DNA of 64,000 nt from Acidobacteria bacterium SCN 69-37 (GTDB lineage: Bacteria > Acidobacteriota > Vicinamibacteria > Vicinamibacterales > SCN-69-37), in NCBI GenBank assembly GCA_001724025.1, contig MEDJ01000023.1, positions 1 to 64,000 on the forward strand. The letters run 5' to 3'. A model generated the notes under the pieces. It ran no database searches, had not been told where the DNA came from, and saw only the letters and a program-made list of their open reading frames with translations. The position numbers were made by a program, and so were the translations under genes. Below are positions 1 through 13,010 of the stretch, piece after piece (within the stretch, counting starts at the first letter, position 1; each line of letters begins with the position of its first letter).

Positions 1-424
1 GGACCTGTACTCGAGGTTCGTCGTCGGCTGGGCCATCAGTGCCGTCAACAACCGCCATCTCACCATCAAGGCGCTCGAGATGGCGGTGAAGCGGCGGTGC
101 CCAGGTCTCGGCTTGCTCCACCACTCCGATCAGGGCTCAACCTACGCCAGTGAGGACTACCAAGACGTCCTGACCGCGTACGGCATCACCTGCAGCATGA
201 GTCGTCGCGGCAACTGCTACGACAACGCCGTCGTCGAAGCGTTCTTCTCGACGGTCAAGAGCGAGATCGGCGAGCGGTTCGCCAGTCACGGCGACGCGAA
301 GATGGAGTTGTTCGACTACATCGAAGTGTTCTATAACCAGCGTCGGCGGCACTCGGCCGCCGGCCGCATGAGTCCGGCCGCGTACGAGCGGCGGCTGACT
401 CAAGCCGCGTAGCTAAACCGTCCA
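1..424 (+). mobile_element. Right end of an IS3-family insertion sequence
   Basis: The transposase frame ends at 412 and the first bases after it, CTAAACCGTCCA (413-424), look like an IS3-type right terminal repeat ending in CA (reverse complement TGGACGGTTTAG). I place the boundary near 424 by inference, because the left end is outside the window and the matching repeat cannot be compared. The element lies inside the 3' part of the gene that reads leftwards from 1369 and supplies that gene's stop codon. Confidence 0.6.
2..412 (+). CDS. IS3-family transposase OrfB, C-terminal part (5' end outside window)
   Basis: The reading frame is open from base 2 to the TAG at 410-412, so the gene begins upstream of the window and 136 residues are visible. 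They form the second half of a DDE integrase core (rve). DLYSRFVVGW carries the second acidic region, HHSDQGSTYAS follows, and NCYDNAVVEAFFSTVKSE carries the catalytic glutamate with the K/R helix typical of IS3 OrfB. The C-terminal YNQRRRHSAAGRMSPAAYE is the usual IS3 tail. The enzyme would cut and join the ends of its own element. Its upstream partner OrfA and the left end are not in the window. Confidence 0.93.
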   Translation, partial: DLYSRFVVGWAISAVNNRHLTIKALEMAVKRRCPGLGLLHHSDQGSTYASEDYQDVLTAYGITCSMSRRGNCYDNAVVEAFFSTVKSEIGERFASHGDAKMELFDYIEVFYNQRRRHSAAGRMSPAAYERRLTQAA

Positions 425-1369
425 CCGGATCGGATCAAGCGCATCCCGCATGAATCGGCAGTCAGCGGGTTCAGCCTCGTCGGTCAGAGCTAGGCGATCT
501 GGCCTTGATTCCGACGTCGGCGAGATACTGCATACCACGTCGTCGTCTAGATGGACCGCCATTTCCCCCGCAGCGTGAAGCAGAAAGTTGTTCCGGTTCG
601 CACCTGGATATGCGCCGATCTCTTGTCGGCCAACCAGCCCAAATTGGAGCACGTCGACATCGACCCCTGACGCCGATGCGATTGCGGCCACGGCATGGCG
701 CTTTCGATCCTGGCCGATGTAGGCAATCGGCGTTGCGAACTCCTTCGACAGTTCATCGGCGAGCCGCGCTCCGAGGAGGCGTGAAGCCGGTTGCTCCGAG
801 TCATCGAGGACGACCACACGATACTGGCGAGACCAGTGCTGGCGATTCCGCAGTACGCTGAGTAGGCAGCGTCTCAGCGTCGGGTACCGGTCTTTCGTGA
901 TGATGGCGACACTGCCAATTGATGGCTCCTCGTCAATCGCCGCGCCGGCTAACTGCGCGAGAATATCGCGCTCCGTTACAACCCATCCTTCGGCGGAGAG
1001 CTGGCGCACATCGACCGCGGCGTGTCTGGCAGCACTCGGGGTACCTGTGACGGAGGACCGGCAGCGGGCAAACAACTCATGAATTCGCGAACGCGTAGTT
1101 GCCGCCAGCTGGGATGAAGTCGGCGTGAGTTGGCCGCCTTGAAGCGATCGCAGTCGCATTGCCGCCTCCGTCTCGACCAACTGCACGCGATCTCGGAGGA
1201 GGTCATGCACGAGGAACGAGCCGTCCTGCAGGTCGTGCAGTACGAACCGCGTCGCCGCGAGACGTGCTTGGTCATGTGCGTTCATTTCGGTGCATGCCTT
1301 GTCATGCGCGGCGATGTGCGACACTGGTTCGCGAGGCCGGCTGGTGACATACGTGCGAACTGCCGGCAC
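413..1369 (-). pseudogene. PqqD-like domain/glycosyltransferase-like protein, truncated by the IS3 insertion
   Basis: The 318-residue product is the N-terminal half of a protein related to the intact 584-residue protein at 5883-7637. Residues about 40-135 resemble a PqqD-like winged-helix domain (RFVLHDLQDGSF, then VDVRQLSAEGW). Residues about 150-290 look like a GT-A nucleotide-sugar domain: SVAIITKDRYPTLRRCL, RVVVLDDSEQP and the acidic HLDDDVV motif. The frame ends in WTV-stop encoded by the IS end, so the C-terminal half is lost. The start is a GTG at 1369 or an ATG at 1285 (MNAHDQARL); neither has a strong ribosome site. It lies just downstream of two Cys-rich peptide genes on the same strand, which suggests it once acted on them. 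Probably inactive. Confidence 0.7.
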
Positions 1370-1438: not shown

Positions 1439-1687
1439 CTACGACGAGCAGCTTTCGCCCTCGCAGCAGTACTGTTCACACGTATGCGGCCCTATGGCGT
1501 TGCAGCCGGTTCTCGCGGTTGGATTTCCCAAGCAGACCGCACCTTGCCAGTTGCAGATGTCCTGCTCGCAGGACGGCTGCGCGGCCGCCTTTTGCGGCGT
1601 CGCAGCCAGAAGTCCAAACGTTGCTCCAGACACCGAGGCGGCAAAGGCCAGGCTGGCCCGAGCGAGTTGATTCCGCTTCATCAACAT
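1439..1687 (-). CDS. Small secreted Cys-rich peptide (paralogue A)
   Basis: An 82-residue protein with a Sec-type signal: KRNQLAR, a hydrophobic stretch, then KAAA before Gln37. The mature part of about 46 residues has eight cysteines (40, 45, 52, 62, 70, 74, 75, 80) and ends Cys-Ser-Ser. It shares C-x4-C, a central TGC and the Cys-Ser end with the peptides at 1727-1978 and 11450-11686. An AGGAG sits 8 bases before the ATG at 1687; a second in-frame ATG lies at 1681. It lies in a leftward series B-A-PqqD/glycosyltransferase. I do not recognise a named family. A secreted disulfide-rich peptide, possibly modified, is inferred from the cysteines and neighbours. Confidence 0.72.
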   Translation of the reverse strand: MLMKRNQLARASLAFAASVSGATFGLLAATPQKAAAQPSCEQDICNWQGAVCLGNPTARTGCNAIGPHTCEQYCCEGESCSS

Positions 1688-1726
1688 ATATTGATCTCCT
1701 GCTGATTGAGTCGTGTGTGACAGCGG

Positions 1727-1978
1727 CTAGCTGCACGAGTAGCTATCGCAGTGGTAGCCGCCCCCACTGTCCATGTCGCAGCCGGTGGCCTGAGACGCCG
1801 GTCTGCAGGCCTCGAAACCGATTGGATCGAATCTATAGCACTCGTCGTTTTCGCACCACTCTGCCTGAACCGTCTGTGGACTGAGCGAGGCGCCGAAGAT
1901 GATCCCCGCGATGGACGCCATGCACATTGCGCTTGCTTGCACGGCCTTTTTGATAGAACCCGTCGATTCCTGTGTCAT
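1727..1978 (-). CDS. Small secreted Cys-rich peptide (paralogue B)
   Basis: An 83-residue protein: basic start (SIKK), hydrophobic segment about 14-34, signal peptidase-like site QTVQA before Glu40, and a mature region of about 44 residues. Mature cysteines are at 42, 47, 58, 67, 77 and 82, with one more (19) inside the signal. CENDEC matches CEQDIC of its neighbour, QATGC matches the TGC of both paralogues, and the protein ends Cys-Ser. A strong ribosome site (AAGGAG, 7 bases before the ATG at 1978) supports the start. It is the first gene of the leftward series. Function unknown; a secreted disulfide-rich peptide is inferred. Confidence 0.75.
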   Translation of the reverse strand: MTQESTGSIKKAVQASAMCMASIAGIIFGASLSPQTVQAEWCENDECYRFDPIGFEACRPASQATGCDMDSGGGYHCDSYSCS

Positions 1979-2917
1979 GTCGAAACTCCTTCTTCAGTGA
2001 CGTGGACCACTGACGAGCACGTCTTGCCCGCGGCGGCCACACGCGATCGGTGCAAGGACCATGCCCCTGCGTAGTAGGGACGACGAGGCTGCCACTCGCA
2101 CGTGGATGGCGCTGAATCGAGAAGTAAAGACGGATCGCCGTCGAGTGCGTGTGTGATGCAACGCGCAACTTGCAACAATCTGTTTCGTCGAATGAAACAC
2201 CTGACTGCTGGTGTCGTCGCTCGCAAGTCATGGCCACCGGCGTCTGCCGGCGGTGGTCAAGGTCCAAAGCGACGCTCCTCCGTCGGACTCTCGTCTTCGG
2301 AGAAAGCGACCGCAGTCCGGCCACCGCGACTCCCGCACGATACGAGGAGGAGGTGATAGTGGAACCGTTCGCGGCGGGGCACCGGCTCACAGCGGCGTCC
2401 TCGAGGCTGAGCCCATGGCGGTCGGTGAGGGCAGACCCGAGACTGTATCCTGGGTACGACTGCGCCGATCTGGTTCATCCGGACGACGTGCTCTGTCGGG
2501 GTCGCTGAACCAAGCGATTCCGCGAGTGTTCCTCCGGTAGACCCCCCCTTCGATTTCGTGCGGTTGAACCGCGTCGGAGCCTTTGAGACCATGGCGAGGC
2601 TTGTGCAGTTCCACCGGCGCGACCGCCCTGGGGAGATGTTCGCCGATAGCCGGTGGCACCGCCGGCAGCAGGAACCGATCGAGGCGTTGGTAGAGCGCAC
2701 CAACGCTGGCACCGCTATGCGGCGGGCGGATTTCTTCGCACGGTCCCTTTTATATACAGTTTCAAGCCGAATTCGAGCTTACAATCGGGTTCGAATCTCC
2801 GTGCAGGTGCCAGATAAATCATTGCCAATCAGTGATTCGCGGTCAGCCTTGGAAGCGAATTGTCCCTCGTTCTTGCCTCCTCAAACGCCTATCACGCCAG
2901 CGTAGCTTTGTGGGCTC
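1979..2917. other. Long stretch without a convincing gene
   Basis: About 940 bases upstream of the peptide gene at 1978 and downstream of the Fic gene. Open frames exist on both strands, but none has a recognisable domain, a good ribosome site or composition matching its neighbours. Near the peptide gene are two short inverted repeats: TCAGTG/CACTGA at 1994-2013 and TGTTTC/GAAACA at 2181-2199. They may belong to the peptide promoter. The right part (2728-2815) holds the left copy of the tRNA-end-like repeat. The rest may be decayed mobile DNA; I cannot identify it. Confidence 0.5.
2728..2815 (+). repeat. Left copy of a tRNA-3'-end-like direct repeat flanking the Fic gene
   Basis: About 88 bases similar to 4503-4592. 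Over the best 58 aligned bases, with no gap, about 44 are identical. Both copies contain CAGTTTCA, GCCGAATTC, a small hairpin with loop GCTTACAA here or GCTACAA in the other copy, then GGTTCGAATC and a CCA end, like the variable arm, T arm and acceptor end of a tRNA. No 5' half of a tRNA lies upstream. The paired copies around one gene suggest att-like ends of an integrated cassette, which is inference. Confidence 0.55.
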
Positions 2918-4291
2918 TTAGTCGCCGGCGTTCCAGATGGCCGTCCAGGCAGCAAACTCGGCGGGCCTGATCTGGTAGCGCGCGAAGTTGCCCTCGTGCA
3001 GGCTGAGCAGTTCTTCTTCGGCGAGAGACCGGAACGACTCGCGTTCATCTGCCGCGATGTTCTGGTTCGCCCATGCGGCGATATGACCGGCGGCGGCACG
3101 GCGATCCATGGGAGCGCGGACGACGTCGGTGACGATGGCGCGAAGCGCATCGCGGTGACGCAGCCGGAAGGGGTCAGGTTCGCCGAGCGACTGGCGGACG
3201 GATGCGTAGCGCGCCGCCGATCGCTCGTACGCCCAGAGGAAGACGTCTTTGAGCAACTCGCCGCGATTGAGTTCATAGACGCCCAACGTCGCATGCGCAT
3301 AGAGATCGCGTGGCACATCGGTGAAGGACAGGGGCGACAGGTTCGCGCGGACGAAGGGGATATTCGCGGCCAGGCGCGAGACACGCTTGTTCACATCGTC
3401 GAAGGGTTGCAGGTAGGGCAGGTGCACCATCGCAAAGAAGGCCTGCTCGAAGGGATCGAGAATGGCGGCGGCGGTGGCGAGCACCTGAACGAAGCAGTCT
3501 TCGATGAGTTGCGGCGTCTCTGGCGGGTGGTAGACGGAACCGCCGATGCCCACGCCGATATGGCGGAGGCGGCCCGCGCCGCGCGCGTCGACCAGCAGGT
3601 TGTTGGCCAGGATGCCGTGAAGATTGAGGAGCGTGTAGCGGTTGAACCCGATGTCGGCCGCGTTGGTGACGAGAAACTCCACCGCGTCCTTGTGGTTGAG
3701 GATCATCTGCGCTTCGAGGCGGTCGCGGCCTTCGGCTTCCTGGCCGAACTCGATCAGGCGTTGCGTGTCGAGCAGGGAATAGGTGTTGCCTTCGAGGCGG
3801 CTCGAGTTCCAGGCCAGGTCGATCAGCAGACGGTTCAGGATCTGGCGGGCATAGGTGCCGGCCGGCTGTTGCGCATCACCGTGCCGGCGGCCGACGTCGG
3901 CAAGGCGCGCCCGTTCGCCCGGCGACAGGTAGAACGTCTCGCCCGGGCGATAGCTGTCCAGGAAGGCGCGGTTGTAGCCGACCGGCGTGCGGGCTGTGTG
4001 GGGCAGGCGCACCAGGCGGCGGATGTCGTTGCCGTCGGCTGAGAGCGTGATGCCCGGCTCAGGCGTGTCCGCGGCCGGCGGCGTGCCGGGCCGGTACTTC
4101 GTCCACCGCCCGGAGCCTTCCTTGATCAGGCGGCCCTCCTGTACAAGGTCGCTGAGGTGCCTCTGGAGTGTGCGCGGGCGGAGGGGCTTCGCGAGGAGAT
4201 TGTTCACCTCGCCTGCTGTCAGGGGGGAGCCCTGGGCCAGGATCGCCTGTTCCACGGCCTCCACTGCCGCGTCGTTCTTGGGTCGGGCCAT
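2918..4291 (-). CDS. Fic-family protein with N-terminal winged helix and an atypical Fic motif
   Basis: A 457-residue protein. Residues 1-70 form a winged-helix DNA-binding domain (TAGEVNNLL, RTLQRHLSDLV, GRWTKY). Residues 120-360 form a Fic fold with an inhibitory-helix motif, SSRLEG, at 163-168 (the S/T-x-x-x-E-G/N type), placed before the Fic core. The Fic core motif reads LQPFDDVNKR at 294-303, so the usual catalytic His is Gln295. Standard Fic enzymes transfer AMP from ATP to target hydroxyls using that His, so AMP transfer is doubtful here. The N-terminal domain and the phased repeats just upstream suggest autoregulation. The gene stands alone between two direct repeats and looks acquired. 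Confidence 0.9.
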   Translation of the reverse strand: MARPKNDAAVEAVEQAILAQGSPLTAGEVNNLLAKPLRPRTLQRHLSDLVQEGRLIKEGSGRWTKYRPGTPPAADTPEPGITLSADGNDIRRLVRLPHTARTPVGYNRAFLDSYRPGETFYLSPGERARLADVGRRHGDAQQPAGTYARQILNRLLIDLAWNSSRLEGNTYSLLDTQRLIEFGQEAEGRDRLEAQMILNHKDAVEFLVTNAADIGFNRYTLLNLHGILANNLLVDARGAGRLRHIGVGIGGSVYHPPETPQLIEDCFVQVLATAAAILDPFEQAFFAMVHLPYLQPFDDVNKRVSRLAANIPFVRANLSPLSFTDVPRDLYAHATLGVYELNRGELLKDVFLWAYERSAARYASVRQSLGEPDPFRLRHRDALRAIVTDVVRAPMDRRAAAGHIAAWANQNIAADERESFRSLAEEELLSLHEGNFARYQIRPAEFAAWTAIWNAGD

Positions 4292-4330
4292 CTGGGCGCT
4301 CCTTGCGGCTCTTGCTTGCCGCGCGTCATT

Positions 4331-4416
4331 GCTATGCGCAGGAAAGCACGGCTATGCGCCATAATCAAGGCCTATACGCCATAATCTGGCATATGCGCCA
4401 CTATGATGGCGCATAC
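4331..4416. promoter_or_regulatory. Phased array of TATGCGCCATAAT-like repeats upstream of the Fic gene
   Basis: Four direct copies of a TATGCGCCATAAT-like word start at 4333 (TATGCGCA, partial), 4353 (exact), 4373 (TATACGCCATAAT) and 4392 (TATGCGCCACTAT). The spacing is 20, 20 and 19 bases, about two helical turns. An inverted copy (GATGGCGCATAC) lies at 4405-4416. The array begins about 40 bases upstream of the Fic start codon at 4291. The arrangement fits cooperative binding by a helix-turn-helix protein. The best candidate is the winged helix of the Fic protein itself, which is inference. Confidence 0.65.
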
Positions 4417-4502
4417 AGGCGCTATCCGACCTCAAAGTCTATGCGTGCCAGGCGCGTTCCTCCGCGCGGCACAGGAAGAGACGGGGCGAATCTCAGGCGG
4501 CC

Positions 4503-4592
4503 ACCTTCCTTCGCAGGGATCCTTCAATACGCAGTTTCAGGCCGAATTCTGCGCTACAAGCAGGTTCGAATCCCCGTACCCGTACCAGACCT
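4503..4592 (+). repeat. Right copy of the tRNA-3'-end-like direct repeat flanking the Fic gene
   Basis: Partner of 2728-2815 in the same orientation. It carries CAGTTTCA, GCCGAATTC, a CTGC-GCTACAA-GCAG hairpin, GGTTCGAATC and a CCA end at about 4588-4590. The T-stem bases do not pair well and no tRNA 5' half is present, so this is not a working tRNA gene. It may mark the outer end of the DNA that brought in the Fic gene. Confidence 0.55.
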
Positions 4593-4795
4593 CCGCCGAT
4601 CGGCCGCTGCGCCGAGGCCCTCCGTAGTACGCAGTCGGGTATCTGAAGTCAGGATCGGATGCGGCTCTGGCGCAACGGCATCTTCGATAGAGCCCCGCCA
4701 GACCCTGGCTTTGTGGCACAGAGGTGTAACCGGCGGATCTATCCGAATCGGGACGGGATGACGCGTCCGTCAGTCGGGACGGTCTCTCGCAACCC

Positions 4796-5710
4796 CTACA
4801 GGAGCGGCGCGTCCTGTGCCGTGGGGTCGCGGTCAGGTGCCCGCGGCGGAAGACTGGCGTACTTCGTCCAGGCCTTCGCACCCGCCTCAAGGACATCGGT
4901 ATCGGCGGTGATCGCGCCGGTCGCGAACAGCGCGTCGAGCTGATCTCGTGAGATCGGGCCCTTCGGCGCCTTCTCGACGTCGAGATAGTGATACTGCGCG
5001 ACCGCCGAGCGCGCCGCGATTTCAGTCTGGACCCGCGAGGCCGCTTTCTCGGCAATCAGCTTGCCCTGGGAGGCCAGCGTCTTTGTCGCGTCAATCACGC
5101 GCGCGCCTGCCACGCCCAGCAGTTCGTTCAGCCGGTCGCCGTCGTCCGAGAGAATCTGCTTCTGCACCGAGGCGTCGGCCGACTCGACCGTATCGAGTTC
5201 GAGGTAGCGCGCCGGCCTGAACCCGAGGAAGCCTGCCCACAAGGCGTGCGGCAGCGAGGCGCGCTTGGTGTTGTAATCCTTGATCGCCGCGTTGCACTTG
5301 AGGCGTCGGTTCTGCACGTCGGCTTCGGACTCCGCGATGGCGGTGGCGAGCTTCGTGTACTGCTCGTTCGCCTTCAGGTCCGGGAACTTCTGCGCGATCC
5401 CCTGAATGGTCGACAGCACGGTGCCTGTCTGCTGATAGAGTTGCGGGGTGGCGGCCGTCGCCACGTCCTGCGACACCTTCAGCATGACCGTGCTCTCGCG
5501 GTCCATGTACTTCGCCGCGACGTCTCCCAGCTGATTGACCAGCGACACCTTCTTACGCAGCGAGATGTCGATGTTCGACTGCGCCTCCTTCACGTTCTCG
5601 ACCGCGTGGCGGAGTGTATTGTAGCCCCAGACTGCAAGCAGCGCCAGAAAGGCTCCGAGCACGATGACGAGCCAGAAGATGGTGCTGATGAGACCAACGA
5701 TCGCGTTCAT
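4796..5710 (-). CDS. LemA-family protein with C-terminal GYF_2-like domain
   Basis: A 304-residue protein with one N-terminal membrane segment (about 7-28, IFWLVIVLGAFLALLAVWGY). A LemA helical region follows: HAVENVKEAQSNIDISLRKK, then VNQLGDVAAKYM. LemA proteins are membrane-anchored helical-bundle proteins of unclear role. The last 60 residues (YHYLDVEKAPKGPISRDQL, TDVLEAGAKAW) resemble a GYF_2/DUF4339 module, which is thought to bind proline-rich peptides. The combination suggests an envelope-associated adaptor. The gene is alone on its strand. The ATG at 5710 directly precedes the membrane segment. Confidence 0.85.
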   Translation of the reverse strand: MNAIVGLISTIFWLVIVLGAFLALLAVWGYNTLRHAVENVKEAQSNIDISLRKKVSLVNQLGDVAAKYMDRESTVMLKVSQDVATAATPQLYQQTGTVLSTIQGIAQKFPDLKANEQYTKLATAIAESEADVQNRRLKCNAAIKDYNTKRASLPHALWAGFLGFRPARYLELDTVESADASVQKQILSDDGDRLNELLGVAGARVIDATKTLASQGKLIAEKAASRVQTEIAARSAVAQYHYLDVEKAPKGPISRDQLDALFATGAITADTDVLEAGAKAWTKYASLPPRAPDRDPTAQDAPLL

Positions 5711-5790
5711 GGGGCGGCTCCAGATCGAAGCAAGTTGGGCGTGGAGGCAAGCTGCCCCCGGGGATGGCCGCCGATTATATCAATCCGGCC

Positions 5791-5828
5791 GCGACAACGG
5801 GCCGCACCATCGCGTGATGACGCGGCCG
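5791..5828. repeat. Palindromic repeat, copy 1
   Basis: Starts GCGACAACGGGCCGC and continues as an imperfect hairpin with GGGCCGC- and GCGGCC-type arms around a loop near CGCGTG. A second copy with about four differences lies at 15472-15509. The two copies bracket the glycosyltransferase/peptide cluster. No T-run follows, so a simple terminator is unlikely; a REP-like repeat fits better. Confidence 0.6.
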
Positions 5829-5882
5829 GCGTTGTGTGCCTCCGGCTCCGGGATCACGCACCGACCTCAGGGGCGTATCGGC

Positions 5883-7637
5883 TCAAGCCGCTGTCAACTG
5901 CTCCCAGTCGAGTGATTTCGCCGCGCTCCACATTTCTGGCCACCAGCACAGCAATTCGCCGAATCTGGCTACGAATTGCTGCATTTCGGCGAAGCCAGCG
6001 TCGAGGTCGCCGTCGTGGAATTCGATGGGCAGAAAGAATGCTGGTCGTGTGACGCTCTTCCGGCAGACGCGTTGGTAGTCTTCGAGCGCCCGACGCCAGT
6101 ACACCGGACACGCCGGGTCGGCCGCGGCCGAACTCGCGCGCGTCAACTCCTGGGACAGCGTGCTGAGCTTCGACTCAGCGACGAGCGCACGAAAATCCTC
6201 GGCGGGCAGCATTGCCATGTCGTCGAACAGCCGTCCGAGATGTCTCAGCCGATCCGCGGGGTCCGTTGCCAGGGTTGTCGGGGCCAGGCGGGTGACGACG
6301 AACAGGAGGAAGTCAGCCAGGCGCGATTGGCGCGCCGAAGGCATCAGGTTCTCGTATTGTGCCGGGCGGTCCGACTCGTGCCAGACCCCCCACGGCAGAT
6401 GTGCGAAGAGCGCGCCAGGGGCGATGAGGGCGAGCGTAGCCCCCCACACGCCGTCTTCGTTGCGACCCATTGGCATGAACGGCGGCACAAGCGCTGTGTT
6501 GTCGACCCCCATGCAGTAGGCGACGCATGCGGGATCGTGACCGACGATGACGCGCGTCGCGACCGCCGTGACTTCCCGGCTGCTCGTTGCTGACGCGAAC
6601 GCTGCTTCGTCGCTCCAGAACTGCCGGCGCGTGGGGCTCGAGGCGAAGAGCGGTCCGTGCGAGCAATAGCGAGCCGCGTCGCCCGCGAGGCCGGCGAACG
6701 TCACCCTTACCTTTCGGGCAGCGGCGTCGTTCAAAGCAGCAACGATGTGTCCGCAGGCGTCGATGTAACTGACGTTCGCATCCCGGCATCCGACGACATC
6801 CGCGAGGGAGAGTCCCAGTACCGCGCCGTGGGCGTCCGCGATATCCGCCCCGCTCTCGAGGTCGCGAAGAGCCGCGCGCACGGCATCGCGGTCACCAAAG
6901 AAGCGCCAACGGCGCAGATCGGCATGGCCTGCGAGCGCGACCGCGCCCGTATCGGCGTCGCCCTCTGTCCAGGTCGTGGCGATGACATCGTCGTCCTGCA
7001 TGATCAGCGGCCGGCCGGCTGTCAGGAGAACCGCGATGTTACGCCCGCTGCCGATGTCACCGGGGGTAAGGCTGTACTCGGTGACGGCCGCGGGGATACC
7101 GCAAGAAGTCAGATGCTGTCGCAATAGCGCCGTCTGGCTTACGCCGATGTAATGGGTGCGAAGGCCGGGCGTCCCGTCCTTGCTGGCGGTCGCTGCGCGC
7201 GTGTGCCCGGCGTTGGTGCGTGAGCCATCGATAACAAGGGCTCCGATTCCACGTCGTCGCTGGTGACCCAAGCCTTGAAGCGCCCGCGCGACGGCGCGGG
7301 GCCGGTCGGCTGTGACAATGGCAACTGTTTCGATCGCCTGCGATCGCTGAGGTCCCTCAACTCGTGCTGGTCGAGCCATCTCTCGAAGCAGGCCGCGAGA
7401 CACGAGATAGTCGATGGCGTCCGCGATCGCCGTTGCGCTGGGCGACACGCCGCTCGTCCATGCCTCAGCGACGTGGTCGTGAAGCGGGCGTGCGGCCTGG
7501 CACCGGCTGAACACGGCCGCGGTGAGCGGTTCCAGCGTCTCGACGGCGAGGCTCCGCCGGTCGAGCATCAGGACCGATTCTTTCCCCAGTGCGAATCCGG
7601 AGGTTGCCCGTGGGATCCAGAGCGTGTCTTCAGCCAT
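5883..7637 (-). CDS. PqqD-like domain fused to a GT-A-like glycosyltransferase (intact copy)
   Basis: A 584-residue protein from the ATG at 7637, which overlaps the upstream gene's stop by 8 bases (ATGGCTGA). A longer frame to 7736 exists, but the overlap favours 7637. Residues 1-95 resemble a PqqD-like peptide-recognition domain: SVLMLDRRSLAVE, LEPLTAAVF, then IADAIDYLVSRGLL. Residues about 105-480 look like a GT-A transferase: ETVAIVTADRP, ALVIDGSR, an acidic MQDDDVI and a later MGRNEDGVWGA motif. The truncated protein at 413-1369 is its relative. I infer a glycosyltransferase that may recognise a leader peptide. The donor sugar and target are unknown. Confidence 0.7.
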   Translation of the reverse strand: MAEDTLWIPRATSGFALGKESVLMLDRRSLAVETLEPLTAAVFSRCQAARPLHDHVAEAWTSGVSPSATAIADAIDYLVSRGLLREMARPARVEGPQRSQAIETVAIVTADRPRAVARALQGLGHQRRRGIGALVIDGSRTNAGHTRAATASKDGTPGLRTHYIGVSQTALLRQHLTSCGIPAAVTEYSLTPGDIGSGRNIAVLLTAGRPLIMQDDDVIATTWTEGDADTGAVALAGHADLRRWRFFGDRDAVRAALRDLESGADIADAHGAVLGLSLADVVGCRDANVSYIDACGHIVAALNDAAARKVRVTFAGLAGDAARYCSHGPLFASSPTRRQFWSDEAAFASATSSREVTAVATRVIVGHDPACVAYCMGVDNTALVPPFMPMGRNEDGVWGATLALIAPGALFAHLPWGVWHESDRPAQYENLMPSARQSRLADFLLFVVTRLAPTTLATDPADRLRHLGRLFDDMAMLPAEDFRALVAESKLSTLSQELTRASSAAADPACPVYWRRALEDYQRVCRKSVTRPAFFLPIEFHDGDLDAGFAEMQQFVARFGELLCWWPEMWSAAKSLDWEQLTAA

Positions 7638-8064
7638 GGGGCGCCTCCGCCCGGTGCCGACGCGTCTCGAGATCGATGCAGGCGACACGAAGGCGATTCC
7701 AGTCGAAGCCTTGCGGGAGCCGATCGCGGCAGTCACGGAGCGTGATTCCGAGCCGCCGCTTGAGTTGCCTGTTGACGTTCGACGGGTTGGTCTGTCCTGC
7801 CGCGATGGCCGCGCTCAGCCCCTTCTCGTGTTCGACGTTCACGAGCCATGCCGCACGAAGCCCGCAAGCGAATGGGATGAGGCTCTTCAGGGGTTCCCGC
7901 GTCGCGTTCTTCCACAGCTTCCGGAATCCGCGCTCTCGATACCCGAAAAACGCCGCCACATCAGCAGCGGTCGGGCGATGCCCGGGGACATGGACCAGCA
8001 GCAGGCAGACCGCGGCGAGCACGTCCGTTTCCGTTGGCAGGGCTCTCGAGGTGTACGTCGACAC
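7630..8064 (-). CDS. AraC-type helix-turn-helix regulator (short)
   Basis: A 144-residue protein built around two helix-turn-helix units of AraC type. The first is TAADVAAFFGYRERGFRKLW; the second is LSAAIAAGQTNPSNVNRQL followed by KRRLGITLRDCRDR. There is no obvious sensor domain, so it may be a minimal regulator or lack a domain. It is translationally coupled to the PqqD-like/glycosyltransferase gene. It shares the 198-base divergent promoter region with the rightward series from 8263, so it is the natural candidate for controlling both. The ligand is unknown. Confidence 0.68.
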   Translation of the reverse strand: MSTYTSRALPTETDVLAAVCLLLVHVPGHRPTAADVAAFFGYRERGFRKLWKNATREPLKSLIPFACGLRAAWLVNVEHEKGLSAAIAAGQTNPSNVNRQLKRRLGITLRDCRDRLPQGFDWNRLRVACIDLETRRHRAEAPHG

Positions 8065-8174
8065 GTCGTCCTCTCGCTACGTGCCGCATGAGGAGGAAAC
8101 TTGCGCGCAGAGGTGCGGCGCCAAGGTTCGCATGCGCACGGACCCATACAGTTGAAGCCAAGATGATAGCAGTG

Positions 8175-8200
8175 CCTCTGTCAGGCTGTATCGACAGAGG
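8175..8200. promoter_or_regulatory. Inverted repeat in the divergent promoter region
   Basis: CCTCTGTC at 8175-8182 and GACAGAGG at 8193-8200 are perfect 8-base arms around a 10-base spacer. They lie between the AraC-like gene (start 8064) and the glycosyltransferase gene (start 8263). Twenty-one arm, spacer and flank bases span about two turns, a fair size for a dimeric regulator site. Just downstream is TTGGTAGCGAA (8209-8219), which recurs at 10174-10184 before the gene at 10274. An operator role is inferred. Confidence 0.5.
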
Positions 8201-8262
8201 TCAAATATTGGTAGCGAATTCTTGTGACCTGCCGGCAAGTTCGAGCTATAACATCCCCACCG

Positions 8263-9411
8263 ATGGCACGCATCGTCGTCCTGATGTTTCCGGAACCCGG
8301 TCATCTGTTGCCCACAGTACGTCTCGCTGCGCGGCTGCTGAAGGACGGCCACTCGGTCACGTACGCGACGCTGCCGTGTTACAGGTCCGCACTCTGCGAT
8401 CTCGGATTCGACCTGAGGGCGGCCTTTGAGGATCCGCTGGAACGGACCAATCGACCGGTTGTCTCGCTGCCACTCTGGACATCGCCGGCACCAGGCGTCG
8501 ATCTCTGGCGGAGTCTTGGAGCAGCAGCAGGGATATCCGATGCTCCCGTTCGGACGATCATCAGGGCCGTGGCCGCCACCGTGATTGTTCCGGCCGTCGT
8601 GGACGGCGAGCCCGACCTGCTGCTGTGCGACGCGAAGATTGCCGCAGCCTGCGGCGATGTGCTGGCGCGGAGTCTGCCGAACTGCCGGCTCGTGGCGATT
8701 CGCACCGAACTTCCGATTGGTGATCCCGTCGCGCATCTCGACCTGGTGCTGTGCCCTGTGCAACTCGAATTGCCAACGCTCAGGTCCGTAACGTCGGGGC
8801 GGCACTATTGCGAAGCATCGGTATTTCGCAGGCGGTTGGTCGCCGATGGGTCGACTGGCGTCGCGGACGTGCGTGGTCACGAACGGCTGATCTTCTGCTC
8901 GCTGGGCACGCAGGCGGTCGCCTACGAGCAGGCGACCGCCGTTCTCAGCCGCGTGATTGGCGCATTCGCCGGCCGCGACGGCTATCGTCTGGTCGTGGCG
9001 GCAGGCGCGTTGGCGGATCGGGTGGACGACGCGTCGCAGGCGGCCAACGTCGAGATCTGCCGGTCGGTCGACCAACTGCGGGTTCTCTCGCGCGCGTCGT
9101 TGGCGGTGCTTCACGGAGGCCTGGGGGGCGTGAAGGAGGCGGTGCTCGCTGGCGTGCCGATGGTCGTCGTGCCCTTCGTCTTCGATCAGCGCCCGAACGC
9201 CGACCGCGTGGTCGCACACGACCTTGGTGCGATGGTGCTGCCGGGTGACGCCACTGCCGACCTCATGCGACGGACGGCCGACGACGTGCTGTCGGACGCG
9301 CGCATCGCGTCAGGCGTTGCGCGGATGCAGGCGATTTTTCGCGACGCCGAGTCGCGCGACATCGCCTTCGGTCACGTGACGCGCGTCCTCGAGGAGGTGG
9401 CCACGCGATGA
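8263..9411 (+). CDS. GT1/MGT-type glycosyltransferase
   Basis: A 382-residue protein with the two-lobed GT-B plan. The N-lobe starts ARIVVLMFPEPGHLLPTVRLA, the usual acceptor-side start of UDP-glycosyltransferases. The C-lobe has LIFCSLGTQA, then HGGLGGVKEAVLAGVPMVVVP and FDQRPNADRV, the donor-binding motif of the UGT/MGT group. Such enzymes move sugar from an NDP-sugar to a small molecule or macromolecule. The ATG at 8263 is chosen because the conserved strand begins there, although the frame is open to 8224. It is the first gene of the rightward series and overlaps the next by ATGA. Target inferred to be a cluster product. Confidence 0.85.
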   Translation: MARIVVLMFPEPGHLLPTVRLAARLLKDGHSVTYATLPCYRSALCDLGFDLRAAFEDPLERTNRPVVSLPLWTSPAPGVDLWRSLGAAAGISDAPVRTIIRAVAATVIVPAVVDGEPDLLLCDAKIAAACGDVLARSLPNCRLVAIRTELPIGDPVAHLDLVLCPVQLELPTLRSVTSGRHYCEASVFRRRLVADGSTGVADVRGHERLIFCSLGTQAVAYEQATAVLSRVIGAFAGRDGYRLVVAAGALADRVDDASQAANVEICRSVDQLRVLSRASLAVLHGGLGGVKEAVLAGVPMVVVPFVFDQRPNADRVVAHDLGAMVLPGDATADLMRRTADDVLSDARIASGVARMQAIFRDAESRDIAFGHVTRVLEEVATR

Positions 9412-10157
9412 GGTCGTTGCCGATTGCGCCGTTTCGGATGACCTGGCATCGTGACGTGCCGGACGCCGCGATTGCGTGGGCGATGCACCTGCACCAGAGC
9501 CGGGGACAGGTGGAACGGTGTCTCCAGAACCTGCGCACAAGCCACCCGTATTCGCGCGTGGTCCTCATCAGCGACGGCGACGGCGATGACTACGGGGACA
9601 TCGCGCGGACGTTGGGCTGCGATCTGGTCGAAGGTGCCCATATGCACGCGCTCGCGACGTGCCACTTGTACGTGATCCGGATCCTGGAGGCGCTGTCGGC
9701 CGGCGACGAGACCTACTGCTTCAAGATCGACCCTGACACTGCCGTTTGGCGGCGCTTTCGGGCGCTGCCGGCGTTCTCCTGCCTCTTTGGCACACTCGAG
9801 ACGCTCACTGAGGGACGCCTGGCAGACGTGGATGGTCCACCGAACGTTCAGGGGGGGTGCATCGGCATGACCGCCGACGCCGTCAGGGCGATTCTCGCGG
9901 CTGGCGTTCTGAACGAAAAGAACTGCGTCGAGCACTGGCGAACGACGTGGGCACGATGCGCCGACATGCAACGTGCCGGAGAACGAGGGCAATTTTGTGA
10001 CGATTTCGTCATTTCCTGGGCCGCCGACCAGATCGGCCTGCCGTTACTCGCCCACCCCGAGATTCGGTCGCGGTGGAGGCGCGAGGCACCGTCTCGGCGA
10101 GGAGAGTGGGCGGTGACGCATCCTCACAAGACCGGGCGCGTCCTGGTGAGCAATTGA
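9408..10157 (+). CDS. GT-A-like glycosyltransferase, Fringe-like motifs
   Basis: A 249-residue cytoplasmic protein. A Rossmann-like start (SHPYSRVVLISDGDGDD) is followed by YCFKIDPDTAVW, where Asp-Pro-Asp is in the position of a DxD metal/donor motif. GGCIGMTADAVRAIL then resembles the GGAG-type acceptor motif of Fringe/GT31 enzymes, and CDDFVISW supplies later acidic residues. It overlaps the preceding GT1 gene by 4 bases, so the two are translated together. I infer a second sugar transfer in the same pathway. The family match is from motifs only. Confidence 0.6.
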   Translation: MRSLPIAPFRMTWHRDVPDAAIAWAMHLHQSRGQVERCLQNLRTSHPYSRVVLISDGDGDDYGDIARTLGCDLVEGAHMHALATCHLYVIRILEALSAGDETYCFKIDPDTAVWRRFRALPAFSCLFGTLETLTEGRLADVDGPPNVQGGCIGMTADAVRAILAAGVLNEKNCVEHWRTTWARCADMQRAGERGQFCDDFVISWAADQIGLPLLAHPEIRSRWRREAPSRRGEWAVTHPHKTGRVLVSN

Positions 10158-10202
10158 TTGCGCCCGTGTCAGTTGTTGGTAGCGAAAGCTGTTGCGCTGA
10201 CA

Positions 10203-10227
10203 TTGTCCGAGGCGCATTATCGGACAA
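10203..10227. promoter_or_regulatory. Perfect inverted repeat upstream of the gene at 10274
   Basis: TTGTCCGA (10203-10210) and TCGGACAA (10220-10227) are perfect 8-base arms with a 9-base spacer. They lie in the 116-base gap between the second glycosyltransferase and the secreted protein. Another weak pair, GTCAG/CTGAC, encloses TTGGTAGCGAA a little upstream. It could be an operator for an internal promoter or an RNA hairpin. No T-run follows, so a classical terminator is unlikely. Confidence 0.45.
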
Positions 10228-10273
10228 CTTGCCTGATAGGTGAACGTGACCCCCATCTGGGAATGAGGACGGG

Positions 10274-11407
10274 ATGAGACGCCTTCTCGCCTATTACGGA
10301 CTCGCGGCATGTTGTGCCGTCGCTGTGGTTGCGGCCACTCGGATAGATCTCACGGGCATGGTGCCGGCAAGGAAAGCCGAGAAGCCGGTGGTCGCGGCCG
10401 GTACGGTGACGGCCGCTGGTCTCCCTCTGGCCGGCGTTCGCATGTTCTTTCATACCGCTGGGATCCAGGTCGCTGACGCTACGACTCGCCGAGACGGCGG
10501 CTTCGAAGCGGGCCTCGACGGTCCCGGCGACTACATCGTGATTATCGGGACAAGCGACACCTTGTGGTCGACATATCGCGAAGTGACGCTCTCGCCAGGC
10601 GCGAACGTTGTCGACGTGGACCTTCCTCCGACGACTGTGGACGTGGCGTTCACGGCCGACGGGTTGAAGACCGGCGACGTCGTACAGGTGGCCGTGCTGG
10701 GGCCGACAGCGCCCACCAAGGCCGATACGGTCAGCTTCTTCACGTGGCGCCCGGGAGCCAGAGTCAGGTTCGTCGGGATCGGGTTCGGCGCTTATGTCCT
10801 GACCGCGTTCACGGGAAGCGACGCAACGAAGCGATTGACCGCCGAGACACCTGCGACGTTCGTCCTGACGCCCGACAGGCCCACGGCGAATGTCGATCTG
10901 CGGTTGATCGACCGTCGCCTGGCGCTCGAGGTGCTGGATCCGAATGGAAGTCCGATCGACTACGCGGACGCTCTGGCTCTTCGGCAGCGTCTCGAGCGTG
11001 ATTCGGCTGGTCATTTCGATCTCAGCCACGTGCCCGCCGGCGTGCCGCTCCTCGTGAGCGCCTCGGGTTGGCTGCCGGCCTGCGTGATCACCGAGGCAAA
11101 CGGACGCCAGGTCGTGACGCTTCAGCCGCGCGGTCCGAATCGCTTGATACTCAACCTCCTCGGTGGACCCGGTCGGCCGGTCGGCGATCTGGATGGCTTG
11201 CCCGGAACCGAGTGCCCCGTGCCAGTCGCGGCGTTGGATGTGGATCTGGAGAGCGCGACAGCGGCCGACCGCCTGACGATCGCGGGACTGCCGGAAGGGG
11301 CCTTCCGTTATCGCGCCGATGCATTGGCCCCCGCCATGGGCGTCGTGGTGCCTGGACGCGTCGTCGACTACGCGGTTCCAGCGAGTTGTCAATTCTGCGG
11401 AGGGTAG
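10274..11407 (+). CDS. Secreted or membrane-anchored protein with carboxypeptidase-regulatory-like domain
   Basis: A 377-residue protein with an N-terminal hydrophobic segment (LLAYYGLAACCAVAVVAAT). A beta-sandwich of CarboxypepD-regulatory type follows (VVAAGTVTAAGLPLAGVRMFF, TTRRDGGFEAGLDGPGDY). Two or three further beta-rich repeats follow, with no enzyme motif. The C-terminus ends SCQFCGG, which is odd for this fold and recalls the Cys-rich peptide encoded just downstream. Extracytoplasmic location is inferred. It may bind or present the peptide; function unknown. Confidence 0.65.
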   Translation: MRRLLAYYGLAACCAVAVVAATRIDLTGMVPARKAEKPVVAAGTVTAAGLPLAGVRMFFHTAGIQVADATTRRDGGFEAGLDGPGDYIVIIGTSDTLWSTYREVTLSPGANVVDVDLPPTTVDVAFTADGLKTGDVVQVAVLGPTAPTKADTVSFFTWRPGARVRFVGIGFGAYVLTAFTGSDATKRLTAETPATFVLTPDRPTANVDLRLIDRRLALEVLDPNGSPIDYADALALRQRLERDSAGHFDLSHVPAGVPLLVSASGWLPACVITEANGRQVVTLQPRGPNRLILNLLGGPGRPVGDLDGLPGTECPVPVAALDVDLESATAADRLTIAGLPEGAFRYRADALAPAMGVVVPGRVVDYAVPASCQFCGG

Positions 11408-11449
11408 CACGAGATATCCTCGTGCGCCGCGGATAAAAGGAGGAGTATC

Positions 11450-11686
11450 ATGCCCGGAACTGAAAAGACGACGCTCGCAATGAGCGCGGCCAAGGCCGCG
11501 CTGGCCATGGCACTGCTTGCCCTGCCGGGGCAGCAGGTTGGAGCTGATACGTGGGAATGTAACCACACGACAGGGTGTAATACGTACGCCTACTGTGACG
11601 GGTCTGGTATCGCCTATACCGGTTGCCAGGTGTGGTGCTACAACAACGGTGGACAGGAGTTCAGCGGCTACGCGGATTGCAGCTAG
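11450..11686 (+). CDS. Small secreted Cys-rich peptide (paralogue C)
   Basis: A 78-residue protein with a strong ribosome site (AAGGAGGAG, about 5 bases before the ATG). The signal-like region runs to about residue 32 (QQVGA before Asp33). The mature part of about 46 residues has six cysteines (37, 43, 49, 59, 63, 77) and is rich in Tyr, Asn, Gly and Thr. It shares the C-x5-C start, the central TGC and the Cys-Ser C-terminus with the peptides at 1439 and 1727. It lies among glycosyltransferases, a DsbA-like protein and a permease, so it is the likely product of this series. Disulfide bonding and glycosylation are inferred. Confidence 0.78.
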   Translation: MPGTEKTTLAMSAAKAALAMALLALPGQQVGADTWECNHTTGCNTYAYCDGSGIAYTGCQVWCYNNGGQEFSGYADCS

Positions 11687-11807
11687 CTGCATGCACACCT
11701 CGCTGGCGAAATCGGGGCAGTCGGCTGCTCTGACTTCGCCAGCGAATGTCTGGTGGAGACGAGCAGCGACCGGGCTGGGGTCTCGCGGGCTGAGAGGAGA
11801 AATCAGT

Positions 11808-12281
11808 ATGAGCAAGGCATGGTTGATAGGTGTCGTGATGGCATGCGCGACACTGGGCATTCCCGTCCTGGCCCAAGACACTCGGGAGTATGTCATGGTC
11901 GAGATCAAGCAAGTAGACGGGAAGTTGCGCGGAGGTTATCAGGCGCGTGACGAGAAGCCAGAAGATCTTGAGAGGACGTCAAGCGTGAACATGCAGTTCC
12001 TTCAACGGCGGGATGCGAAGGACGAGAAAGGACGAATCGTGTCTGGCATCGGTGTGGTGGCATGGTTGGAAGGGGACGGTGTGCGGGTCTGGCCATTCTC
12101 CATTGTGCCAAGAGAGGGCGTGCCGAACGCGTTTTATGCATCACCGCAAGGCATCGTAAATACCAGACGCGAGCCCTTGGGCGAATCTGTGCTCAAGGTT
12201 GGCGAAACCAGACGCCTGACCGAGATGCAACAGTGGGGCGTTGAGCCGTTCGTTCTCGAGGTGGTCCGGATCACCCGCTGA
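11808..12281 (+). CDS. Small secreted protein of unknown function
   Basis: A 157-residue protein. The ATG at 11808 is chosen for its ribosome site (GAGGAGA) and because it starts a clean signal peptide: SKAWLIGVVMACATLGIPVLAQ, with cleavage after VLA. The longer open frame has no such features. The mature part is beta-rich and charged (REYVMVEIKQVDGKLRGGYQ, VWPFSIVPREGVP) and has no cysteine. It lies between the Cys-rich peptide and the DsbA-like gene in the same direction. No family recognised. Confidence 0.65.
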   Translation: MSKAWLIGVVMACATLGIPVLAQDTREYVMVEIKQVDGKLRGGYQARDEKPEDLERTSSVNMQFLQRRDAKDEKGRIVSGIGVVAWLEGDGVRVWPFSIVPREGVPNAFYASPQGIVNTRREPLGESVLKVGETRRLTEMQQWGVEPFVLEVVRITR

Positions 12282-12311
12282 GTTGATCGACTTGAGCACC
12301 GTGGAGGAGCG

Positions 12312-13010
12312 ATGGCGAACAGACTGACGGTCCATGGTGTGCTGAACTTCGCGACGACCGTGTTGTTGATGGCGGTTGGTTTCTACGTGTTTCTCGACCT
12401 GGCAAGGTCCTGGCGCCCTGCGTCGCCGCCACCGGCGGTTCTCGCACTTCCGGAGCGGCCGTTGCCGTTGGCCGGCGCTCCCATCGATGGCTCGGCTGAT
12501 GCCAGTGTGGCCATGGTGGTGTTCTCGGACTTCGAGTGCCCGTTCTGTGCGCGGTTCGCGAATGACACATGGCCGGATCTGAAGACGCAGTACGTCGATA
12601 CGGGTCTCGTCCGGGTGTCCTTCCGGCACGCGCCGAACCCGGAGAGCCACCCCGTGGCGGTCAAGCTGGCCAGGGCGGCGAACTGCGCGGGCGATCGCGG
12701 CCGTTTCTGGGATGCGCACGATCGGTTCTTTCACGTGGGTACGGGACGGGCCGTCGTCGACGCCCTGCCCGAGGCGCTCGGTATCGACCGCGCGCAGTAC
12801 GACGCCTGCATGTCGCACATCGTCGATCCGAGGCTCGATGAGGACCGGCGTATCGCCGCGCAGTTCCACGTGGCGGCCACGCCGACCTTCTTCATTGGTC
12901 GCATCGTGGACGACGCGGTTGTCGTGTCCCAGATCATTCCCGGCGCCGCACCGCTCGACTCGTTTCGCCGCGCCCTCGATCGCCTTGTAGACGGGGGCCA
13001 TCCGGGTTGA
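12312..13010 (+). CDS. Membrane-anchored DsbA-like thiol oxidoreductase
   Basis: A 232-residue protein with an N-terminal membrane anchor (about 10-31) followed by a DsbA/BdbD-type thioredoxin fold. The active site is CPFC at 76-79 in FSDFECPFCARFAN. The cis-proline loop is ATPTFFIG and the helical insert contains CAGDRGRFWDAHD. Such proteins form or rearrange disulfides in exported proteins. Beside a gene for a six-cysteine secreted peptide, oxidative folding of that peptide is the natural role, which is inference. GGAG precedes the start, and its stop overlaps the next gene's TTG start. Confidence 0.88.
   Translation: MANRLTVHGVLNFATTVLLMAVGFYVFLDLARSWRPASPPPAVLALPERPLPLAGAPIDGSADASVAMVVFSDFECPFCARFANDTWPDLKTQYVDTGLVRVSFRHAPNPESHPVAVKLARAANCAGDRGRFWDAHDRFFHVGTGRAVVDALPEALGIDRAQYDACMSHIVDPRLDEDRRIAAQFHVAATPTFFIGRIVDDAVVVSQIIPGAAPLDSFRRALDRLVDGGHPG

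What the first reader, a model, noticed from the sequence alone, without database searches (positions are those of the whole stretch)
1439..11686. Family of three secreted Cys-rich peptides with a shared C...C...TGC...CS pattern
Seen in sequence: peptides at 1439, 1727 and 11450 are 78-83 residues, each with a Sec-type signal and a mature part of about 44-46 residues with six to eight cysteines. All share C-x4/5-C, a central TGC and a Cys-Ser end, although otherwise they differ widely. Two sit beside a PqqD-like/glycosyltransferase gene (now broken), and the third sits in a series with two glycosyltransferases, a DsbA-like protein and a permease. Together this looks like a family of disulfide-rich, possibly sugar-bearing secreted peptides that I do not recognise from the literature.
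Basis: partly seen in the sequence, partly recalled or inferred. Interest (0 to 1): 0.87.

Follow-up and report, generated by a model that had tools for sequence, protein, structure and literature searches.

The report
Sec-exported cysteine peptides beside RRE-glycosyltransferases
An Acidobacteriota bacterium carries three small secreted cysteine-rich peptides near an unusual sugar-transfer enzyme whose front end has the fold that peptide-natural-product enzymes use to grip their substrates, which suggests an unstudied family of sugar-decorated, disulfide-tied secreted peptides.

Summary
The three peptides are real genes. Each has a Shine-Dalgarno site, a Sec-type signal, a 44-46 residue mature part with 6-8 Cys, and the best coding score of its six frames. 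The six-Cys/TGC/CS-end frame fits only these 3 of 20,061 reading frames in 590 kb. Peptides 1 and 2 are homologous (E=0.001); peptide 3 shares only the frame (BLAST E=12). No relatives of the peptides were found in 162 genomes of the order.

The anchor is the enzyme. Relatives are rare but reach other Acidobacteriota, a Gemmataceae and a Rhodothermaceae genome. In one distant acidobacterium the RRE-GT directly follows an unrelated Sec-exported peptide with 15 Cys; other relatives lack such a neighbour. A repeat unique in the genome precedes both the two-GT operon and the peptide-3/DsbA operon.

Best reading: a RiPP-like system in which RRE-GTs glycosylate Cys-rich precursors before Sec export, followed by periplasmic disulfide formation. 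RRE-GT fusions are already published as unexplained. Glycosylation is inferred, not shown.

The parts
1439..1687 (-). peptide 1: Sec-type signal (MLMKRNQ...KAAA) + 46-residue mature part with 8 Cys, ends CSS
   Evidence: SD AGGAG; homologous to peptide 2, E=0.001; best of six frames
1727..1978 (-). peptide 2: Sec-type signal (MTQEST...TVQA) + 44-residue mature part with 6 Cys, ends CS
   Evidence: SD AAGGAG
11450..11686 (+). peptide 3: Sec-type signal (MPGTEK...QVGA) + 46-residue mature part with 6 Cys, ends CS; 42 nt behind 10274-11407
   Evidence: SD AAGGAGG; shares only the six-Cys/TGC/CS frame with the others
413..1369 (-). truncated paralogue of the RRE-GT (N-terminal RRE-like segment + first half of the GT-A domain incl. 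DDD), C-terminal half lost at the IS boundary
   Evidence: Pfam Glycos_transf_2 E=9e-8; similar to 5883-7736, E=2e-5; found by the RRE-GT profile, E=1e-31; no second C-terminal half elsewhere in the assembly
1..412 (+). 3' end of an IS3-type transposase (rve domain) abutting the truncated 413-1369; contig edge
   Evidence: Pfam rve_3 E=9.5e-11; contig C23 starts at window base 1
5883..7736 (-). intact RRE-glycosyltransferase (likely start ATG at 7637, overlapping the stop of 7630-8064)
   Evidence: homologues; GT-A fold vs MtdL Z 13.7, MPGS/GPGS about 10; invariant DDD
7377..7625 (-). [quoted passage not shown]
   Evidence: AlphaFold2 pLDDT 71; PDB matches TbiB1 Z 10.5, TigE 10.3, lasso B1 10.0, LynD 9.1, MccB 8.2, PqqD 7.8
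7630..8064 (-). possible AraC-type HTH regulator, same strand and overlapping the RRE-GT start
   Evidence: weak HTH_18 match, E=0.048, below cut-off
8200..8231 (+). copy 1 of a genome-unique repeat (core TNTTGGTAGCGAA) before the two-GT operon
   Evidence: only two copies in 4.43 Mb, control 0
10168..10199 (+). copy 2 of the same repeat before the CarboxypepD_reg/peptide-3 operon
8263..9411 (+). GT1-type glycosyltransferase (macrolide-GT-like)
   Evidence: TIGR01426 E=7.7e-36, below cut-off; UDPGT and EryCIII-like_C above Pfam cut-offs
9408..10157 (+). putative glycosyltransferase (DPDT motif), overlaps the previous gene by 4 nt; no family match
   Evidence: no Pfam/NCBIfam hit; no homologue in 162 order genomes; the GT call is inference
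10274..11407 (+). exported CarboxypepD_reg protein, ends SCQFCGG
   Evidence: PF13620 E=8e-8
11700..11745 (+). hairpin directly behind the peptide-3 stop (possible stability element or partial terminator)
   Evidence: 21-nt arms, 86% complementary; z -4.6
11808..12281 (+). exported protein (Sec-type N-terminus by eye), 157 aa, no family
12312..13010 (+). membrane-anchored DsbA-like thioredoxin with CPFC
   Evidence: Thioredoxin_4 E=2e-19, DSBA E=1e-8
13007..15442 (+). ADOP-type duplicated permease (MacB_PCD/FtsX)
   Evidence: TIGR03434 413.7 bits, cut-off 622.3

Best explanation
A RiPP-like glycopeptide system. The ribosome makes 78-83 residue precursors whose N-terminal Sec signal also acts as the leader. 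In the cytoplasm the RRE of a dedicated RRE-GT fusion grips that leader and its GT-A domain puts a sugar on a residue of the Cys-rich core (Ser, Thr, Tyr, Asn or Cys; which one is unknown). The GT1-type enzyme and the 9408-10157 protein may extend the sugar or modify a second peptide. The peptide then leaves by Sec, the signal is cut at the AxA site, and the membrane-anchored DsbA-like protein forms the disulfides in the periplasm. The exported CarboxypepD_reg protein, the 157-aa protein and the ADOP permease would serve transport, binding or self-protection. Shown by computation: the peptides, the RRE fold, the GT-A fold, and the clustering of the peptides. Supported but not proven: functional pairing of RRE-GT and peptide, and shared regulation of the two operons. 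Inferred: glycosylation, its site, the order of steps, the biological role. The copy next to peptides 1 and 2 is broken; the intact copy could in principle serve all three.
For: RRE fold of residues 38-120: the best PDB matches are nearly all RREs of RiPP enzymes (also MccB in the whole-protein model), with the beta3-alpha3 order that defines RREs. GT-A domain with invariant DDD. Two RRE-GTs and the only three frames with the Cys pattern lie within 11.3 kb of a 4.43 Mb genome, none in 400 kb of control from the same genome. In G232, a distant acidobacterium, an unrelated Sec-exported peptide with 15 Cys ends 141 nt before the RRE-GT on the same strand, with two CarboxypepD_reg proteins further upstream, the domain also found before peptide 3. 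The repeat core occurs only twice in the genome, before the two-GT operon and before the peptide-3 operon. Signal/leader parts of peptides 1 and 2 are at least as similar as their cores (z 3.2 vs 2.4). Precedents: bufferin precursors carry Sec signals that, by preliminary results, take part in recognition by the modifying complex (PMC12452194); cytoplasmic glycosylation before export occurs with HMW1C and BAHT enzymes (PMC8151025).
Against: No Cys-rich exported neighbour was seen at the RRE-GTs of G160, G161, G547, Gemmataceae and Rhodothermaceae, though several lie at contig ends. Peptides 1 and 2 sit beside the broken copy; peptide 3 is 3.7 kb from the intact copy on the opposite strand. None of the peptides has a found homologue, so co-evolution with the GT cannot be tested. 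The G063 relative lacks the RRE. RRE-like folds can be vestigial. Full-length model confidence is low (mean pLDDT 53).
Confidence: 0.5

Rival explanations
1. The peptides are ordinary exported disulfide-rich peptides (effector, inhibitor, bacteriocin-like or metal-binding) that are not glycosylated. The GT and DsbA genes are neighbours that serve envelope or polysaccharide chemistry, and the RRE-GT acts on some other peptide or protein.
For: Most RRE-GT loci outside this genome show no Cys-rich exported peptide nearby. Peptide 3's operon contains a DsbA-like protein, enough for a plain disulfide peptide. The intact RRE-GT is in another transcription unit from all three peptides.
Against: The N-terminal fold is that of peptide-binding domains of RiPP enzymes. 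The peptides and both RRE-GTs are confined to one 11.3 kb stretch. G232 shows direct adjacency. The genome-unique repeat ties the two-GT operon to the peptide operon.
Confidence: 0.3
2. The RRE-GT glycosylates proteins or long precursors, and the Cys-rich peptides are only one of several substrate kinds, as with MNIO enzymes that may modify both peptides and proteins.
For: The G232 candidate is 170 aa with 15 Cys, unlike the 78-83 aa peptides here. The G063 neighbour is a 101-aa protein without signal, ending in a four-Cys CS tail. MNIO precedent in PMC12452194.
Against: No conserved protein partner was seen across RRE-GT loci.
Confidence: 0.15
3. A decayed locus: an IS insertion broke the RRE-GT at 413-1369, and peptides 1 and 2 are relics on their way out.
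For: Transposase directly at the truncation and contig edge; the lost C-terminal half is nowhere else in the assembly.
Against: Peptides 1 and 2 keep intact frames, SD sites, signals and all Cys, and the second RRE-GT copy and the peptide-3 operon are intact. This concerns the present state of one half, not what the system does.
Confidence: 0.05

Closest known systems
Bufferins and related MNIO-modified RiPPs (Buf1/DUF2282, Buf2, oxazolins)
   Same: Cys-rich, Sec-signal precursors; an RRE-type domain in the modifying machinery; preliminary evidence that the Sec signal is part of the recognition sequence (PMC12452194)
   Different: Modifying enzyme is an iron-dependent MNIO with a DUF2063-RRE partner; here an RRE fused directly to a GT-A glycosyltransferase, and no MNIO or DUF2063 match among the cluster proteins scanned
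Glycocins (sublancin, glycocin F, thermoglycocin)
   Same: Short Cys-rich peptides paired with a glycosyltransferase; sugar plus disulfides proposed (PMC12457901)
   Different: Glycocin leaders are removed by a C39 peptidase-transporter; here Sec-type signals and no C39/PCAT gene among the scanned neighbours; the GT here carries an RRE
RRE-glycosyltransferase fusions reported by RRE-Finder
   Same: Same domain architecture in principle; reported as fusions absent from known RiPP classes and as candidates for new ones (PMC7470986, PMC12710340)
   Different: Those reports name no Sec-exported Cys-rich precursor for them in the text read; whether their sequences belong to this family could not be checked
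HMW1C / BAHT protein glycosyltransferases
   Same: Dedicated cytoplasmic glycosylation of a Sec-exported protein before export (PMC8151025)
   Different: Large adhesin substrates, other enzyme families; the signal peptide is not required for glycosylation there
GT-A enzymes MtdL, mannosyl- and glucosyl-3-phosphoglycerate synthases
   Same: Nearest folds of the catalytic part (MtdL Z 13.7; others about 10)
   Different: Small-molecule sugar chemistry; identity 8-17%; fold only

Membership tests
RRE-containing RiPP enzyme | beta3-alpha3 winged-helix RRE fold | tested here: met
   Domain model pLDDT 71 with E-E-E-E-H-H-H order; TbiB1 Z 10.5, TigE 10.3, lasso B1 10.0, LynD 9.1, TruD 8.3, MccB 8.2, PqqD 7.8
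RRE-containing RiPP enzyme | Match to a PqqD/RRE sequence model | tested here: inconclusive
   No Pfam or NCBIfam PqqD/RRE match in any of seven members; PF05402 is known to miss most RREs (PMC7470986); RRE-Finder models were not available
RRE-containing RiPP enzyme | Binds the leader of a genome-neighbour precursor | not testable with these tools
   needs a binding assay or complex prediction
RiPP biosynthetic cluster | Short precursor gene next to the modifying enzyme | tested here: inconclusive
   Met in G232 and at the broken copy here; 3.7 kb apart for the intact copy; not seen at five other loci
Glycocin | C39 peptidase-containing ABC transporter and leader without Sec signal | tested here: not met
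   Sec-type signals on all three peptides; no C39 or ABC match among the scanned cluster proteins
Glycocin | O- or S-linked sugar on the mature peptide | not testable with these tools
   needs mass spectrometry
Bufferin / MNIO RiPP | MNIO (DUF692) enzyme with DUF2063-RRE partner in the cluster | tested here: not met
   None among the scanned cluster proteins
Bufferin / MNIO RiPP | Cys-rich precursor with Sec signal | tested here: met
   hydropathy and AxA only, no SignalP
One peptide family of three | Significant sequence similarity among all three | tested here: not met
   1 vs 2 E=0.001; 3 vs 2 E=12; peptide 3 mature part p=0.24 and 0.22
One peptide family of three | Shared Cys frame not expected by chance | tested here: met
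   3 of 20,061 frames, exactly these; post hoc pattern

The most novel reading that the evidence does not exclude
A new RiPP class in which an RRE fused to a glycosyltransferase reads a Sec signal peptide as its leader and glycosylates hypervariable Cys-rich cores before Sec export and periplasmic disulfide formation; the RRE-GT is conserved across phyla while the precursors diverge beyond recognition.
Probability: 0.35. Interest if true: 0.8.

Novelty: new variant of a known kind. Interest (0 to 1): 0.62.

Why it matters
RRE-GT fusions have been listed since 2020 as fusions absent from known RiPP classes. This locus gives concrete candidate precursors in two distant Acidobacteriota. If right, it would be another kind of bacterial RiPP, beside bufferins and their MNIO relatives, whose leader is a Sec signal; it would make the open question of how modification is finished before export testable in a simple two-gene system, and would point to glycosylated disulfide-rich peptides in a phylum whose small secreted peptides are little studied.

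Tried and rejected
Profile of the three peptides against 162 genomes of the order: no relatives beyond the genome itself; a weak hit in G147 (E=0.008) covers only the signal part inside a 370-codon frame and was rejected. G232 peptide against 158 genomes of its class: no relatives. The 9408-10157 protein: no homologue in the order. RRE-GT in plasmids: none. PDB sequence search with the RRE-GT profile: nothing meaningful. Missing C-terminal half of 413-1369 elsewhere in the assembly: not found. The G340 hit is a fragment without informative neighbours. Loose Sec+Cys scan in 400 kb of control gave four candidates, none convincing by eye. A one-mismatch copy of the repeat core at 2849 is at chance level. 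No Rfam or tRNA features. A chance origin of the pattern was rejected. 'Glycocin' as a label was rejected for lack of C39/PCAT and presence of Sec signals. Searching from the Gemmataceae locus as a centre was not possible.
Full report
Observation. The three ORFs are present as described. Start sites have strong Shine-Dalgarno sequences, and each peptide's frame has the best codon score of its six. Signals end in AAA|QP, VQA|EW and VGA|DT; mature parts have 46, 44 and 46 residues with 8, 6 and 6 Cys. The pattern C-x4,5-C-x4,11-C-x6,9-TGC-x2,10-C-x3,14-CS(S)-end fits exactly three of 20,061 stop-to-stop frames in 590 kb, namely these. The pattern is post hoc, but composition-preserving shuffles of peptide 3 reach a looser form of it in only about 6 of 100,000. 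Peptides 1 and 2 are homologous (E=0.001). Peptide 3 is not similar by BLAST (E=12) and is tied to them only by the Cys frame and by location.

The enzyme. 413-1369(-) is a GT2-type protein (PF00535 E=9e-8) cut off beside an IS3-type transposase at the contig edge; the missing half is not elsewhere in the assembly. No Pfam or NCBIfam model matches it. [quoted passage not shown] The rest has a GT-A fold (MtdL Z 13.7; mannosyl- and glucosyl-3-phosphoglycerate synthases about 10) with an invariant DDD. The full-length model is of low confidence (mean pLDDT 53), so only domain-level statements are made.

Distribution. The RRE-GT is rare: 5 of 162 genomes of the order, 5 of 396 sampled across the phylum, one of them a fragment, 2 of 119 in the family of G232, and four loci in the 84,980-species collection, including a Gemmataceae and a Rhodothermaceae MAG. 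In G232 the RRE-GT (L017 8144-10030, minus) is preceded at 141 nt by a 170-aa Sec-exported peptide with 15 Cys (10172-10684; mature part begins DVWMNC, compare DTWEC in peptide 3), then by two CarboxypepD_reg proteins. The window's peptide-3 operon also begins with a CarboxypepD_reg protein; that domain is common in this phylum (own knowledge), so this is weak support. G063 has a 101-aa protein ending DCGDHCDMPDLCS just upstream of a relative that lacks the RRE. G160, G161, G547, Gemmataceae and Rhodothermaceae show no such neighbour; some lie at contig ends. Peptide-based searches found no relatives.

Links inside the locus. The core of a 32-nt repeat (TNTTGGTAGCGAA) occurs at only two places in the 4.43 Mb genome, before 8263 and before 10274 (reversed control 0). 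Its arms form GTCA...TGAC dyads (by eye). It therefore connects the two-GT operon (8263-10157) with the CarboxypepD_reg/peptide 3/157-aa/DsbA-like/ADOP operon (10274-15442). A possible AraC-type gene (7630-8064, HTH_18 E=0.048) lies on the other side and overlaps the likely start of the RRE-GT (ATG 7637). A hairpin (z -4.6) directly follows peptide 3.

Mechanism. The most likely reading is RRE-guided glycosylation of the precursor in the cytoplasm, Sec export, signal cleavage and DsbA-like disulfide formation. [quoted passage not shown] cytoplasmic glycosylation before export has precedents in HMW1C and BAHT enzymes (PMC8151025). Glycosylation, its site and the role of the product are inferred.

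Relation to the known. RRE-GT fusions were reported as absent from known RiPP classes in 2020 and again noted in 2025 (PMC7470986; PMC12710340), without the Sec-exported precursors proposed here in the text read. Eight literature searches found no report of this pairing; most subscription papers are not in the library. It is not a glycocin (no C39 transporter, Sec signals) and not a bufferin (no MNIO/DUF2063 among the scanned genes).

Verdict. Observation confirmed; 'family of three' holds for two by sequence and for the third by Cys frame only; the glycopeptide reading is plausible (0.5), strengthened by the RRE fold and the G232 locus, and weakened by RRE-GT loci without such peptides.

Noticed in passing
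window 8200-8231 and 10168-10199: Repeat with core TNTTGGTAGCGAA and GTCA...TGAC arms, found only at these two places in the whole genome; looks like an operator of a locus-specific regulator.
   Followed up: partly
window 11700-11745: Very stable hairpin (z -4.6) directly behind the peptide-3 stop codon, without a T-run.
   Followed up: partly
window 10274-11407: Exported CarboxypepD_reg protein ending in SCQFCGG, a C-terminal CxxC next to a disulfide-type peptide.
   Followed up: no
L011 10579-10884 (G063): 101-aa protein without signal, with a four-Cys CS-ending tail, just upstream of an RRE-GT relative that lacks the RRE.
   Followed up: partly
L012 9077-12749 (G161): RRE-GT with an ABC-2 permease and an ABC ATPase directly upstream, no Cys-rich peptide: perhaps a differently exported product.
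   Followed up: partly
window 2918-4291 and 4796-5710: A Fic-domain protein and a LemA-GYF protein lie between the two RRE-GT copies; no evident link.
   Followed up: no
L019 463-3613 (Gemmataceae): RRE-GT next to a 366-aa divergent gene, without a Cys-rich peptide: the family reaches Planctomycetota with unknown substrate.
   Followed up: no
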